Position numbers and translations under genes: made by a program. DNA of 64,000 bases. It comes from Flavobacterium aeripolare (GTDB lineage Bacteria; Bacteroidota; Bacteroidia; Flavobacteriales; Flavobacteriaceae). The stretch is from contig NZ_JABSNL010000010.1 in NCBI RefSeq assembly GCF_013294025.1, positions 124,001-188,000 on the forward strand, read 5' to 3'. Below the pieces are notes generated by a model, which saw only the letters and a program-made list of their open reading frames with translations, was not told where the DNA came from and searched no databases. Positions 54,679 to 59,925 of this stretch are shown piece by piece; within the stretch, counting starts at the first letter, position 1; each line of letters starts with the position of its first letter.

Positions 54679-57600
54679 TTACTTTTTAATCAAGTATTTT
54701 ACGTTTCTGTTTTTACCATTAATAACGGTTTTAAGGAAGTAAAACCCTCTGCGTAATTTTGATAATTCTAAGTTGGTTACTGATTTACCAGCGGCAATCT
54801 CTTGCGAAGATTGACTTACTAGTTGCCCGTAGATATTGTAGATGTAAAAATCAGCTTTGGCTACAGCCGTACTGTTAATACTCACATTAACATTACTTAC
54901 AAATGGATTAGGATAAACGACCACATTTGTAATTACACAAGAATTATCCGGTGTACTGTTATCGCAGCCTCCTAATGTGTCTCCATGTGCTAAGTGTGCT
55001 CTTACAGCATACTCATCTACACATATTGTTTTTCCTTTATGGCAAATTTCAACTTTAGGATAACGTCTGTTATTGCCACAAGAAACATCTTGTACATTTA
55101 CGGTACGTTCTGTAGTTGCTGTACAACCCACTGCGTCAGTAACGGTAAGTGTGTAAGTTGTTGTTTGGTCAGGGCAAACTTTTATTGAAGCCGTTTTAGC
55201 ACCGTTGCTCCATTCGTACGTAAATGGGAGTACACCTCCTGTAATAGTACCTGTTTTTAAAGTGGCATACGCTTGTGGGCTGTATCCTTTATAAACAGTT
55301 ACTTCATCTGCTGATGGGATTTGGATCTCCTTAGACTCTTCAATAGTAAACGTTGATGTTACCGTTTGTTTAACAGCATCCTCAATCACTACGGTATATT
55401 TTCCTGCAGCTAAATTTGTGATTTCTGAAGTCGTTGCTCCCGTATTCCACGTATAGGTATACGGACTAATACCTCCAGAAACGGTTACGTTTGCAAAACC
55501 ATCTTCGTTACCAAAACAGATAGTATTTGAACTAGAAACAGATTCGATTTTTAAATCTTTTAATTTTAAACGTATCGAAACTGGGAAGTGGTCTGAAGCT
55601 GTTTTAGTATAAGTGGCCGAGTAGAATTCATAATGTACTCGTGCTGTTTCTGGAATATAAGAAGTGGCTAATTCATTAGAAAGTGTGATGTGATCAATCA
55701 TATTCTCATAAGTAGCATACGATCTAAATCCACCATCACTTAATGATTTTGTAGGTATCGAATAACGCGTAGTATCAGCAACATAAGCACTATATGATGA
55801 GGCAGTAGTAGTAACATCAGAAACCGTGAAATCTACATCGTCATTGTAATCACCTAAAAGAATTAAATTAGCGTCTGGGTATTGCGTGTCTAAACTGTCT
55901 TTAAGCATTTCGACATCAAATTTACGCATATCGTATTTTTCTTGTGCTCCACCAGAAGTATTTGCTCTCGCATGTAAATCAATGATGTTAATTTGTTTTT
56001 CGGTACCATCGATGGTCACATTAGCGGTAAGCATAAAAGGCATTCTTCCGCTAGCAAAAAAGCGTGTTTTATCTGCAGTAGGGTAATTGGCTAAAGCCGA
56101 AACATCACCACCATTGTAGTACGGGTGTACTGTTTCTAATAACACCTTAGTACTTACCGGTTTTACCGTTTTATTCTTATATATGAATCCTACCTTTTGA
56201 GAATCTGTTGTAGTATCGTTAGGATAAGAAGTAGCTTTAGATAACACATAGCTATAATCGTTCATTTCGCTTACCATTTGTTTGAACAAAGGTTCGTCTG
56301 AAATTTCTTCAACGGCGTAGATGTCAGCATCTAGGCTTTGTAATACAGTTTTTACAGCCTCTTTCTGGATCTCATCAGCATTTACTTGACCTGCAGTAGG
56401 AGCGTTTTTCTCATCACCAAACCAAGCAATATTCCAAGTAACGATATCTAGGGTTTTGTCTTTAGAAATAGCCAAGTCTGTACCCGCTTGTTGGTATTTT
56501 GCTGCACATGGAAAATCACTTTGCATTCTAGGTAGCAATTGCTGTGTGGCATAAAAATTAGAAACAACACCTATTACTTCTGAACAATTCTCTGGTTGAC
56601 TAAAACCAGTTAAGTCTGCTACATCAGCATCTAATCTAAATTGTGCTTTTGCAGTAGCATCAGTAATATCGACACTTGAATTACCAAAAATAATAGCTCC
56701 AGGCTTAGCAAATACTGGGTTTTGAATACGAACTAATTCTCCTGGGTGTGCACTCATTTCAGATAAAGTGATCGTAAGCGGACTAATCAATTGTGCCGCT
56801 TGACCGTTACTTTTTACAGCACTAACTGGGCTAATTTGGATTTGCTCATTGTAAGTACTTTTGTTTCCTGTAATAGTTAGTGATTCTCCTATTTTAAATA
56901 AACCAGTTCCATGAACCGTTTTATCAAAAACGGCAACAGCTCCTGTAGCATCTTGAATATAGGCAGATCCTCCTAATTGGTCAGAGACCGTTAATGTTCC
57001 TGTTATGGTTACAATTTCACCGTCTGCTTTTGCTCTTGCTTCAGCGATAGGTAAAACGATAAGTGTATCGGCTACATCTTTAAAGAATTGCCCTGAATTA
57101 ATAGCTCCTGAAGTTGCTGTGGCAGCTTGCCAAGTAAAATCGCTATATTTAAATCCAGCACCAGTTAATTGTAGCGAACTGCCAATGGCCGCAGTGCTCG
57201 CTTCAGCGATACCAATATCTGTACTGGTAATTCCGTTTGCAGGACCGTTAGTAGCAGTAAAACTTCCTTCGTAGCTTAAAAATTGAACCACTTTTCCTTC
57301 TGGATTTACTAATGCAAGTGCATCAGGGGAACCATTTTGTAAACCTGGAATGGCAACATATACTGTTCCGTACCCATTACTTTGATTAGGAATAGAACCT
57401 GACAAAGTACCAATAGGTGTATAACTAGCACCGTTAGATCCATTGTAAGGCACAATAGTCCAGTTAGTTAAATCAGTCCCAGCATATCCAGCAATTTCGA
57501 CGCCTTCATTCTCATCTGTTCCAGCGTTGTCATAATGAATCTCGTTTATAAAAACCAGATCTCCAAAATTTTGTCCTGCGTTCACAGCACCAAAGGTACT

Positions 57601-59925
57601 CGTTGCTGCTTCCCATGTAAAGTCGGTATATGTAGTTCCTTTTCCAACTAATTGTAAAGAGGTTCCAATTGTTGCTGTACTTGTTTCAGCAACTCCTATA
57701 TCTGTGCTTGTCAATCCGTTTGCAGGACCATTTGTCGCTGTAAAACTCCCTTCGTAGCTTAAAAATTGAATAACATTATCATTGTTATCTACTAAGGCAA
57801 TTCCGTCCGGAGCTCCATTTTGTAAACCAGCAATAGCTATTGATACTGTTCCATACCCATTTGATTGATCCGGAATTACTCCTGATAAAACACCAATAGG
57901 AGTGTAGCTTGCACCACCGCTTCCATTGTAAGGGATAATTTTCCAATTAGTAATATCAGTTCCTGCAGGTCCCGCGATTTCTACACCTTCGTCAAGATCT
58001 GTACCAGCATTGTCATAGTGAATTTCGTTAATAAAAACAGTAGCAGTAGTCGTCGTTGCTGTTCCTTTTAAAGTAGTTACAGTAATAGCGGCACTAGGAT
58101 CTGAACTGTTATCTGCTTCATCGATTGCTCTTACCGTAAAATTATAGGTGGTGTTTTCTTTTAAATTTGATAAAGTAGCGCTATTGGTTGTAACCGTCTG
58201 CAATTCTTCATCATTATTGTAAATAGTGTAAGCAGTTCCGTTTGACGGCTCCCACGATAAAGTGACAGCAGTAGTAGTAAGGTTTGAAGCAACTACGTTT
58301 GTAGGAGGGACTAATTTAACCGCTACTTTAGTAAAAGACTGTCCTAAATTGACCGCTCCATAAGTGCTAGTTGTGGCTGCTTGCCAAGTAAAGTTGGCGT
58401 AGCTGTTACCAGTACCTACAAGTTGTAACGACAAGCCTGCAGCATCAAGGCCGTTTTGTATAACGCCTATGTCTGTGCTTGTCATTCCGTTTGCAGGACC
58501 ATTTGTGGCAACAAAACTCCCTTCATAGCTTAAAAACTGAACCACTTCTCCAAGGTTGTTTATTAGTGCTAAACCATCAGGCGCACCATTTTGAAGTCCA
58601 ATGATAGGAACAAATACAGTCCCAAAACCATTTGACTGCTCTGGGATTGTACCAGAAAGCACTCCCACTGGAGTATAACTAGCGCCACCATTACCATTGT
58701 ATGGAATAATAGACCAATTGCTTAAATCAGTACCTGCCGTTCCGGCGATTTCGACACCTTCTCCTACGTCAGTTCCAGCATTGTCATAATGAATTTCGTT
58801 AATAAATACCGTTGCAATAGGATTAGGCGCAGTTGTAGTGGCAGTAGTTGTAAATGTAACAGTATTGCTAGCTAGAGAATTGTTTCCTGCAGCATCAAAA
58901 GCTTTAATAGTAAGTGTGTAGCTAGTATTAGCGGTTAAGCCGACTAGGTTATAGCTATTATTTTGGGATGAAGCTAAGAAGTTAGTTCCGTTAAAAATAC
59001 GGTATCCTAAAACAGCAACATCATCTGTGCTTGCAGTCCAGTTTAGTATTGCAGTATCTTGCGTAACGCTGTTGACAACTAGGTTACTAGGGGTTGTAGG
59101 AGCCTGAGTATCTGCAGTGGTATTTCCGGTGAAGCGATTTTCGGCTTGAGGACCGCCCCAAATTGTTGTTGCAAATGCAGGATTATCAATAAAAGGATTT
59201 CGATTACCTTGAACTCCCTCTAAAATTGTGTTTCGATTTAATTCAAATTGAGATACAGGATCTTCAATGTTCCACAGTAGTAAAATATCGGTAATATCAT
59301 TGTTAAAAGTACGCGGTCCTACGGTAACGTTTGCAGGAAGGCATTGTTCACCATAGCGCAAATACATGTACATCAGCATTCGAGCAACATCACCTTTCCA
59401 CTCATCACCAGGATAGAAAAAAGTGTTGTTAAAAAGACCGGCATTTCCTGATCCAGCTCCATAAGGATAATTACTTCTTGTGGCGTTAAAAGCAATATCA
59501 GAAGCTCTTAAATGATGTGCATCACTTCCAGGTCCCGAAGTCCCTAAGTTAGGTACGCCTAAAGATTTGGCATAAACGTGTTCGCGATTCCATTGACCAG
59601 CATTTCCACCATTTGCATCCTTTGAACGAGTTCGATCATTGCTAGTATCTGTATCCGTGTCGTTGTATCCATAAACAAGCAATACATTGTTAGGATTTGC
59701 AGGATCAATGTCAGTTAGTTTAAGAGCATCCCAAACGCCTGGAGTATAACTTAAAGAGGTAGTGTTTGCGCTAATTAATTGAGATAATGTTGTCTTTAAT
59801 GTGTTGCCAGTTTGATTGAGATTTGTTCCATTATAATAGGATGGAATTTGAGCGAATGCCGCGCCACTAATTAGCAGCAGGGTCCCCAGCAATTTTAGTT
59901 GTTTTCGAATGTAAAGTTGTTTCAT
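54679..59925 (-). CDS. Giant secreted dual nuclease with lamin-tail repeats and T9SS signal
   Basis: 1748 residues. Signal peptide (ends A-A-F-A-Q), then an EndA/endonuclease I domain (about 25-255) with N-R-E-H-V-Y-A-K-S-L-G and G-S-D-A-H-H-L-R-A-S-D, a fibronectin-III domain (about 275-360), three lamin-tail (LTD) domains starting near 374, 630 and 792 with a second FN3 between the first two, an OB-fold-like region (about 955-1140), an exonuclease/endonuclease/phosphatase domain (about 1155-1455; I-V-T-W-N-I-A-W-F-G and S-D-H-F-P-V-S-I), SprB-like and PKD-like repeats (about 1475-1610), a Cys/His module (1624-1656), and a T9SS type A sorting domain from about 1672 ending Y-L-I-K-K. It is expected to be secreted or surface-anchored by gliding-type T9SS and to degrade extracellular DNA. 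Single gene, no immunity partner. Confidence 0.88.
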   Translation of the reverse strand: MKQLYIRKQLKLLGTLLLISGAAFAQIPSYYNGTNLNQTGNTLKTTLSQLISANTTSLSYTPGVWDALKLTDIDPANPNNVLLVYGYNDTDTDTSNDRTRSKDANGGNAGQWNREHVYAKSLGVPNLGTSGPGSDAHHLRASDIAFNATRSNYPYGAGSGNAGLFNNTFFYPGDEWKGDVARMLMYMYLRYGEQCLPANVTVGPRTFNNDITDILLLWNIEDPVSQFELNRNTILEGVQGNRNPFIDNPAFATTIWGGPQAENRFTGNTTADTQAPTTPSNLVVNSVTQDTAILNWTASTDDVAVLGYRIFNGTNFLASSQNNSYNLVGLTANTSYTLTIKAFDAAGNNSLASNTVTFTTTATTTAPNPIATVFINEIHYDNAGTDVGEGVEIAGTAGTDLSNWSIIPYNGNGGASYTPVGVLSGTIPEQSNGFGTVFVPIIGLQNGAPDGLALINNLGEVVQFLSYEGSFVATNGPANGMTSTDIGVIQNGLDAAGLSLQLVGTGNSYANFTWQAATTSTYGAVNLGQSFTKVAVKLVPPTNVVASNLTTTAVTLSWEPSNGTAYTIYNNDEELQTVTTNSATLSNLKENTTYNFTVRAIDEADNSSDPSAAITVTTLKGTATTTTATVFINEIHYDNAGTDLDEGVEIAGPAGTDITNWKIIPYNGSGGASYTPIGVLSGVIPDQSNGYGTVSIAIAGLQNGAPDGIALVDNNDNVIQFLSYEGSFTATNGPANGLTSTDIGVAETSTATIGTSLQLVGKGTTYTDFTWEAATSTFGAVNAGQNFGDLVFINEIHYDNAGTDENEGVEIAGYAGTDLTNWTIVPYNGSNGASYTPIGTLSGSIPNQSNGYGTVYVAIPGLQNGSPDALALVNPEGKVVQFLSYEGSFTATNGPANGITSTDIGIAEASTAAIGSSLQLTGAGFKYSDFTWQAATATSGAINSGQFFKDVADTLIVLPIAEARAKADGEIVTITGTLTVSDQLGGSAYIQDATGAVAVFDKTVHGTGLFKIGESLTITGNKSTYNEQIQISPVSAVKSNGQAAQLISPLTITLSEMSAHPGELVRIQNPVFAKPGAIIFGNSSVDITDATAKAQFRLDADVADLTGFSQPENCSEVIGVVSNFYATQQLLPRMQSDFPCAAKYQQAGTDLAISKDKTLDIVTWNIAWFGDEKNAPTAGQVNADEIQKEAVKTVLQSLDADIYAVEEISDEPLFKQMVSEMNDYSYVLSKATSYPNDTTTDSQKVGFIYKNKTVKPVSTKVLLETVHPYYNGGDVSALANYPTADKTRFFASGRMPFMLTANVTIDGTEKQINIIDLHARANTSGGAQEKYDMRKFDVEMLKDSLDTQYPDANLILLGDYNDDVDFTVSDVTTTASSYSAYVADTTRYSIPTKSLSDGGFRSYATYENMIDHITLSNELATSYIPETARVHYEFYSATYTKTASDHFPVSIRLKLKDLKIESVSSSNTICFGNEDGFANVTVSGGISPYTYTWNTGATTSEITNLAAGKYTVVIEDAVKQTVTSTFTIEESKEIQIPSADEVTVYKGYSPQAYATLKTGTITGGVLPFTYEWSNGAKTASIKVCPDQTTTYTLTVTDAVGCTATTERTVNVQDVSCGNNRRYPKVEICHKGKTICVDEYAVRAHLAHGDTLGGCDNSTPDNSCVITNVVVYPNPFVSNVNVSINSTAVAKADFYIYNIYGQLVSQSSQEIAAGKSVTNLELSKLRRGFYFLKTVINGKNRNVKYLIKK

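What the first reader, a model, noticed from the sequence alone, without database searches (positions are those of the whole stretch)
54679..59925. One secreted protein carrying two different nuclease folds
An endonuclease I (EndA-like) domain and an exonuclease/endonuclease/phosphatase domain are joined in one T9SS-exported chain, separated by three lamin-tail domains and an OB-fold-like region. The combination would let a single surface protein nick, bind and degrade extracellular DNA, for phosphate scavenging, biofilm turnover or defence against competitors. Lamin-tail domains occur in secreted bacterial nucleases, but this double-nuclease layout is unusual.
Basis: partly seen in the sequence, partly recalled or inferred. 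Interest (0 to 1): 0.65.

Follow-up and report, generated by a model that had tools for sequence, protein, structure and literature searches.

The report
Secreted DNA-degrading protein with two nucleases
A Flavobacterium gene encodes one protein, marked for export, that joins two DNA-cutting enzymes which other bacteria, such as the cholera germ, secrete as two separate proteins; it probably digests DNA outside the cell for food, and is an unusual assembly of known parts.

Summary
The 1748-aa minus-strand ORF 54679-59925 carries Endonuclease_1 (163 bits), two fn3, three lamin-tail domains (LTD), an OB/DUF5689-like region, Exo_endo_phos (39.7 bits, cut-off 24.5), SprB repeats and a type IX sorting domain.

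The protein is a modular join. Its C-terminal part is a type-IX-tagged relative of the Vibrio Xds / Shewanella ExeM layout (LTD-OB-EEP). An EndoI-fn3 block sits between signal peptide and first LTD; in Lutibacter the same architecture occurs with and without it. The double-nuclease form is in nine named Flavobacterium genomes, one Lutibacter MAG and one other genus, probably two more, and, seemingly independently, in one genome of another class. It is rare in the genus (2 of 101).

In V. cholerae the separate counterparts, Dns and Xds, are both needed for best growth on DNA as phosphate source (PMC3212620, passages). Most likely this is an extracellular DNA-scavenging enzyme. I have no expression, activity or phosphate-regulation evidence for it. 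New variant of a known kind.

The parts
54679..59925 (-). whole double-nuclease gene, 1748 aa
59851..59925 (-). residues 1-25, putative signal peptide ending ...GAAFA before Q26 (judged by eye, no predictor used)
   Evidence: similar N-termini in orthologues
59179..59811 (-). Endonuclease_1 domain, residues 39-249; NREH motif at 113-116, D135, N147, R150
   Evidence: 163 bits; invariant in 31 aligned rows; numbering
58840..59112 (-). first fn3 domain, about residues 272-362
   Evidence: (fn3, two stretches) and PDB chitinase A1 match at 274-359
58330..58815 (-). lamin-tail domain 1, residues 371-532
58078..58308 (-). second fn3 domain, residues 540-616
57559..58044 (-). lamin-tail domain 2, residues 628-789
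57076..57561 (-). lamin-tail domain 3, residues 789-950
56485..57054 (-). OB/DUF5689-like region, about residues 958-1147
   Evidence: homology to DUF5689 in relatives; beta-rich in the AF2 model; no direct Pfam hit in the window protein
55588..56442 (-). EEP (DNase I-like) nuclease domain, residues 1162-1446; N1165, E1207, H1318, D1359, N1361, D1411, H1412, S1444, D1445, H1446
   Evidence: invariant in 30 aligned rows; Foldseek best match DNase I 2dnj, E 5.1e-10; numbering
55081..55539 (-). SprB repeat (1463-1498) and a second SprB-like stretch (about 1500-1615)
   Evidence: two stretches; coordinates
54958..55062 (-). small Cys/His motif region EICHKGK...HLAHGDTLGGC, residues 1622-1656, no Pfam hit
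54682..54918 (-). type IX secretion type A sorting domain, residues 1670-1748
   Evidence: 41.4 bits vs 27; 35.6 bits vs 23

Best explanation
This is an exported DNA-digesting enzyme made by joining two secreted nucleases of known kinds: an Endonuclease I module (the family of Dns/EndA) and a flavobacterial, type-IX-tagged relative of the Xds/ExeM layout (LTD-OB-EEP). Proposed working: after Sec and T9SS export (sequence signals shown, export inferred), the EndoI domain cuts long DNA internally (inferred from family) and creates ends; the DNase I-like EEP domain, helped by the OB region, degrades those pieces further (inferred from Xds/ExeM, where OB plus EEP are needed for activity). fn3 and LTD domains act as spacers and perhaps attachment. 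The most likely use is scavenging nucleotides and phosphate from environmental DNA. The EndoI-fn3 module is gained or lost as a block between signal peptide and first LTD.
For: Both domains pass Pfam cut-offs. Motif residues invariant: EndoI NREH, D135, N147, R150 in 31 of 31 aligned rows; EEP N, E, H, D-x-N, DH and SDH residues in 30 of 30. dN/dS 0.02-0.11 for both domains against three orthologues. AF2 of OB+EEP (pLDDT 74) matches DNase I best. The EndoI profile aligns to five solved Endonuclease I sequences (best 8.8e-13). T9SS sorting domain and SprA in the same genome. Presence/absence of the EndoI+fn3 block in Lutibacter (L094 against L095). Unfused EndoI-LTD proteins and unfused LTD-DUF5689-EEP-SprB proteins exist in the family. 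A further fusion in another class looks independent. In V. cholerae each of Dns and Xds alone permits growth on DNA as phosphate source, but both are needed for best growth (PMC3212620, passages). Lutibacter incorporated DNA-derived carbon in sediment (PMC8289736, abstract and passages).
Against: No activity, expression or localisation data for this protein or any fused relative were found. EndoI structure prediction failed (pLDDT 32) and its NREH part was not covered by the PDB alignments, so the match of NREH to the solved active site rests on family motif knowledge (recalled). In 14 of the 16 strong EEP homologues with an intact 5' end there is no EndoI in the same chain, so fusion is not essential. 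Exo- versus endonuclease action of the EEP domain cannot be predicted: Xds is an exonuclease but ExeM is reported as an endonuclease. No phosphate genes among the seven neighbours scanned.
Confidence: 0.75

Rival explanations
1. Only one of the two nuclease domains is catalytically relevant; the other is a decaying or purely DNA-binding passenger.
For: Many relatives have only one of the two in the chain; the Pfam score of the EEP domain is modest (39.7 bits).
Against: The motif residues of both domains are invariant across the aligned relatives, and both domains show dN/dS of 0.02-0.11, in the range of the other conserved domains (LTD3, OB) and below the fn3 domains.
Confidence: 0.1
2. The protein works mainly in biofilm remodelling or against DNA released by, or taken up by, competitors, rather than in feeding.
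For: Dns and Xds shape V. cholerae biofilms (PMC6746945 abstract and passages; PMC3212620 passages); fn3, LTD and SprB repeats could serve attachment (inference).
Against: Pfam scans of seven neighbours showed efflux, sensor-kinase, AraC and DnaJ genes, none pointing to biofilm matrix or immunity (no defence library was searched). Not mutually exclusive with feeding.
Confidence: 0.25
3. The EEP domain is a phosphatase or phosphodiesterase for non-DNA substrates, so the protein is not a double nuclease.
For: The EEP superfamily includes phosphatases; a Bacteroides mannosyl-6-phosphatase (4c1r) is among the structural matches, at rank 32.
Against: DNase I is the best structural match; the LTD-OB-EEP order equals that of the DNases Xds and ExeM.
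Confidence: 0.07

Closest known systems
Xds of Vibrio cholerae / ExeM of Shewanella oneidensis (LTD-OB-EEP extracellular nucleases)
   Same: Order LTD, OB-like, EEP nuclease; signal peptide; conserved EEP residues (mapped by motif)
   Different: Three LTDs and fn3 domains, an added EndoI domain, and a type IX sorting domain with SprB repeats in place of the C-terminal hydrophobic anchor with rhombosortase site described for ExeM
Dns/VcEndA, Vvn, EndA (Endonuclease I family, PF04231; names other than Dns/VcEndA recalled)
   Same: Endonuclease_1 by Pfam and by profile alignment to PDB 1oup/1ouo/2g7e/2vnd/2pu3
   Different: The solved chains are stand-alone enzymes of 210-231 aa; here it is the N-terminal module of a 1748-aa chain
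Flavobacteriaceae EndoI-fn3-LTD proteins with type IX sorting domains (e.g. L130, L131, L133 here)
   Same: EndoI of the same subtype (63-68% identical by BLAST) followed by fn3 and LTD
   Different: No OB-EEP half
Flavobacteriaceae LTD-DUF5689-EEP-SprB-CTD proteins (e.g. L073, L093, L095 here)
   Same: The C-terminal two thirds
   Different: No EndoI-fn3 module
1,049-aa lamin-tail nuclease of Candidatus Izemoplasmatales (PMC8289736)
   Different: Former Tenericutes host; no second nuclease mentioned in the passages seen

Membership tests
Endonuclease I (PF04231) | Score above curated Pfam cut-off over the full profile | tested here: met
   163.1 bits vs 25, profile 1-234 of 235
Endonuclease I (PF04231) | Catalytic motif residues (E-H pair and Asn; motif assignment recalled) | tested here: met
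   NREH 113-116, N147, R150 invariant in 31 rows including the second EndoI protein of the same genome; the NREH part was not covered by the PDB alignments
Endonuclease I (PF04231) | Endonuclease I fold | tested here: inconclusive
   AF2 model of pLDDT 32 is uninformative
EEP / DNase I-like superfamily (PF03372) | Score above curated cut-off, full profile | tested here: met
   39.7 bits vs 24.5, profile 1-225 of 225
EEP / DNase I-like superfamily (PF03372) | Metal-binding and catalytic residues | tested here: met
   N1165, E1207, H1318, D1359, N1361, D1411, S1444, D1445, H1446 invariant in 30 rows; pattern as named for Xds E532, D711, N713, D787, H837, mapped by motif, not by a direct alignment
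EEP / DNase I-like superfamily (PF03372) | Fold | tested here: met
   Foldseek DNase I 2dnj E 5.1e-10, TM 0.66 by target length, on a model of moderate confidence; by sequence alone the profile reached only E 0.021 to DNase I
Xds/ExeM-type nuclease | Order LTD - OB - EEP | tested here: met
   OB only by homology to DUF5689 of relatives
Xds/ExeM-type nuclease | C-terminal hydrophobic anchor with rhombosortase (GG) site, as in ExeM | tested here: not met
   Por_Secre_tail at the C-terminus instead; hence described as a type IX relative, not as Xds/ExeM proper
T9SS type A cargo | C-terminal type A sorting domain | tested here: met
   41.4 bits vs 27, 35.6 vs 23
T9SS type A cargo | T9SS machinery in the same genome | tested here: met
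   SprA, 2784.9 bits; other components not tested
T9SS type A cargo | Export actually T9SS-dependent | not testable with these tools
   needs a mutant

The most novel reading that the evidence does not exclude
Joining the two nucleases in cis is adaptive: endonucleolytic cuts by the EndoI domain feed fresh ends directly to the OB-EEP degrading domain of the same molecule, a 'cut and chew' DNA-digesting machine that unites the Dns/Xds division of labour, and this has been selected at least twice independently in T9SS bacteria.
Probability: 0.3. Interest if true: 0.5.

Novelty: new variant of a known kind. Interest (0 to 1): 0.36.

Why it matters
[quoted passage not shown] A single protein uniting counterparts of the two nucleases that V. 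cholerae secretes separately is a natural test of whether their cooperation benefits from being in one molecule. It could be a marker gene for DNA-feeding flavobacteria and a ready-made dual nuclease, possibly cold-adapted (inference from species names such as F. frigidarium and F. frigoris; habitats were not looked up).

Tried and rejected
Chance or artefact: rejected, EndoI and OB-EEP lie in one ORF in nine named Flavobacterium assemblies. Degenerate nuclease: rejected by conserved motifs and low dN/dS. Functional hint from neighbours: an OEP/HlyD/MFS efflux set on one side is shared with L085, L086 and L090, the PAS-domain sensor kinase on the other side with L085 and L086 only; a DnaJ-like gene further out is near the nuclease in 8 of 9 named Flavobacterium loci (not L097). 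None suggests a function. EndoI structure prediction failed. PDB phmmer with the full protein gave only fn3-region matches; the profile searches did better for EndoI (8.8e-13) but reached only E 0.021 for EEP. Phosphate regulation was not tested in this genome; in F. johnsoniae an 'Endo/exonuclease/phosphatase' gene (Fjoh_0074) is tabled with a small change under phosphate depletion (PMC8115612, table passage); its relation to this protein was not tested. Literature: a 2015 survey of the bacterial DNaseI family names five kinds of extra domain, lamin tail among them and Endonuclease I not (PMC4486849, passages). The searches listed no paper whose title or abstract start describes an EndoI plus EEP fusion; listings were capped (for example 20 of 8,850), one search found none, and the library lacks most subscription journals. 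I recall (no call) that some database entries carry names like 'ribonuclease/nuclease fusion protein', so annotators may have seen it.

Full report
Check of the observation. The minus-strand ORF 54679-59925 is open over 1748 codons. Pfam gives Endonuclease_1 (residues 39-249, 163 bits), two fn3 stretches, three LTD stretches, Exo_endo_phos (1162-1446, 39.7 bits against a cut-off of 24.5), two SprB stretches and Por_Secre_tail; NCBIfam confirms the T9SS type A sorting domain. The OB-like region gives no direct Pfam hit in this protein; it is named from its relatives, where the same stretch matches DUF5689.

Catalytic residues. In a 31-row alignment of the EndoI domain (window plus 30 of the 33 loci with BLAST hits; L089, the same genome as L062, and L139 and L140 were left out) the NREH motif (113-116), D135, N147 and R150 are invariant, also in the second EndoI protein of the same genome, at 36% identity. 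In a 30-row alignment of the OB-EEP region (window plus 29 of the 35 loci) N1165, E1207, H1318, D1359, N1361, D1411, H1412, S1444, D1445 and H1446 are invariant. Left out there were L072, L089, L090, L091, L096 and L097; all of these but L072 are in the alignment, where the same ten positions are invariant. The Xds study names E532, D711, N713, D787 and H837 as active-site residues, and D787A and H837A impaired activity (PMC6746945, abstract and passages); I map these to E1207, D1359, N1361, D1411 and H1446 by motif, not by a direct alignment. An AF2 model of OB-EEP (14 sequences, mean pLDDT 74) has DNase I as best PDB match (2dnj, E 5.1e-10). The EndoI profile matches five solved Endonuclease I sequences (best 8.8e-13), but only over its C-terminal half, and the AF2 model of the EndoI domain failed (pLDDT 32).

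Selection. Nei-Gojobori comparison with three orthologues (L085, L086, L091) gives dN/dS 0.023-0.100 for EndoI and 0.052-0.111 for EEP, against up to 0.31 for the second fn3; LTD3 and OB are in the same low range. Both nuclease domains are kept by purifying selection. dS is high (0.74-1.56 for these two domains) and could not be computed for a few other domains, so ratios are rough.

Where the layout occurs. Among 101 genomes of the genus, 78 have an EndoI match, but only two, the window's genome and G029 (the F. glaciei assembly by its contig), have it in an open frame above 1700 aa (matches weaker than about 4e-12 were not listed, and genes cut by contig edges would be missed). Named relatives found with the OB-EEP piece (14 loci, one of them, L098 in an Acidobacteria MAG, only a weak partial match): EndoI is in the same ORF in nine Flavobacterium loci (frigidarium, frigoris two assemblies, degerlachei, glaciei, kayseriense, gillisiae, sp. 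28A, sp. 11) and in one Lutibacter MAG (L094), absent in Lutibacter sp. B1 (L093) and L. citreus (L095), and undecidable in one contig cut at its end (L096). The nearest named genome is F. frigidarium, 93% identical over the OB-EEP piece.

Family level. In 299 genomes of the family, 20 have a strong OB-EEP homologue (over 300 bits). Of these, 2 carry EndoI in the same intact frame (the window and G317), 14 have an intact 5' end without EndoI, and 4 are cut by a contig edge (G103, G392, G396, G157). For G396 and G157 a same-subtype EndoI gene runs off another contig edge inside an LTD repeat, which suggests a fused gene broken by the assembly, not proven. In G317 (L064) Pfam found EndoI, fn3, DUF5689, EEP and SprB, but no LTD at E 0.001 and a sorting domain below its cut-off (22.4 vs 27).

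Origin. The ten closest unfused EndoI domains are 62-69% identical, and no EEP was found by BLAST in any of the 20 loci. Of seven of these proteins scanned by Pfam, five are EndoI-fn3-LTD chains with a sorting domain (below its cut-off in L130; L138 also has a MAM domain), L135 lacks fn3, and L143 is cut by a contig edge. Of the five unfused or fused EEP relatives scanned, L093 and L073 begin with an LTD after the signal peptide; L067 has no LTD hit. Aligning L094 with L095 shows the same chain with or without an EndoI+fn3 block between signal peptide and first LTD; L093 is also without the block but differs in its LTD region. The neighbour sizes of L094 and L093 (511 aa upstream; 344 and 795/796 aa downstream) suggest the same locus, by ORF length only. 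In the tree of 33 EndoI rows, 18 rows labelled unfused (one of them, L143, cut) group together (support 85/77), apart from all fused or probably fused ones; in the tree of 32 OB-EEP rows (L082 and L083 left out, and duplicates) fused and unfused rows are mixed. This fits one old EndoI lineage that was added and lost, or moved between EEP genes; support is modest and I do not choose.

An apparently independent case. In 345 genomes sampled from the phylum, 127 match the OB-EEP profile at 1e-20, some only over the OB part. I tested 22 of these plus 6 for EndoI, chosen mostly for long frames. One of 28, G531 (another class by its kinship label), has both in one frame: EndoI (78 bits)-Calx-beta-LTD-like stretch-Ig-like-DUF5689-EEP-sorting domain, 1293 aa (the LTD-like stretch is read by eye and was not called by Pfam). 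Its EndoI scores best by BLAST against stand-alone EndoI proteins of G403 and G408 (89 and 85 bits; best fused one, L094, 60.5; all about 30% identical); no tree was made, so independence is likely but not proven. In G403 the separate EndoI and EEP genes lie about 4 kb apart with three oppositely oriented genes between; in G408 the matches of both kinds lie about 8 kb apart.

Mechanism. In V. cholerae, Dns (EndA type) is an endonuclease and Xds an exonuclease on linear DNA; each alone permits growth on DNA as phosphate source, both are needed for the best growth, and both genes were induced at lower phosphate (PMC3212620 and PMC6746945, passages). In ExeM the OB-like and EEP parts are essential, while without the LTD activity was slower in vitro and almost normal on plates (PMC6085458, passages); in Xds truncations of the LTD stayed active but those reaching the OB part did not. 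The present protein puts the counterparts of both in one T9SS-tagged chain; SprA is present in the genome. So I propose that EndoI makes internal cuts and OB-EEP degrades the fragments. Shown: domains, residues, selection, sorting signal, modular history. Inferred: activities, order of action, export, nutritional role. ExeM was reported to be an endonuclease, so 'exo' for the EEP part is a guess.

Verdict. Real and correctly read at the domain level, and uncommon, but an assembly of known secreted parts found in a group of Flavobacterium species and some relatives. The recurrent fusion, once apparently independent, is the most interesting point.

Noticed in passing
window 54958-55062 (-), residues 1622-1656: Small conserved Cys/His motif (EICHKGK..CV..AV..HL.HGD.LG.C) between SprB repeats and sorting domain; no Pfam hit, no second copy found in the genome, conserved in the three Lutibacter relatives aligned.
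   Followed up: partly
window 58840-59850 (-): Possible mosaic gene: the first fn3 is synonymously far closer to Flavobacterium sp. 28A (L086, dS 0.23) than to F. frigidarium (L085, dS 1.07), and EndoI and LTD1 lean the same way (0.74 vs 0.93; 0.59 vs 0.70), while LTD2, LTD3, OB and EEP are closer to F. frigidarium, suggesting recombination between orthologues.
   Followed up: partly
L175 3352-14292: In G403 separate EndoI and EEP nuclease genes, both with a sorting domain, lie about 4 kb apart on the same strand.
   Followed up: partly
G020 contig C105 4485-11913: Six EndoI matches in a row on one strand in one genome of the same genus.
   Followed up: no
G060, G592 and similar genomes: EEP proteins in frames of about 1140-1190 aa in other Flavobacterium genomes, matching only the EEP part of the profile; none of the ten tested has EndoI in that frame.
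   Followed up: partly
L054-L061: Proteins of about 550-620 aa in several Flavobacteriaceae match only the OB/DUF5689 part of the query.
   Followed up: no
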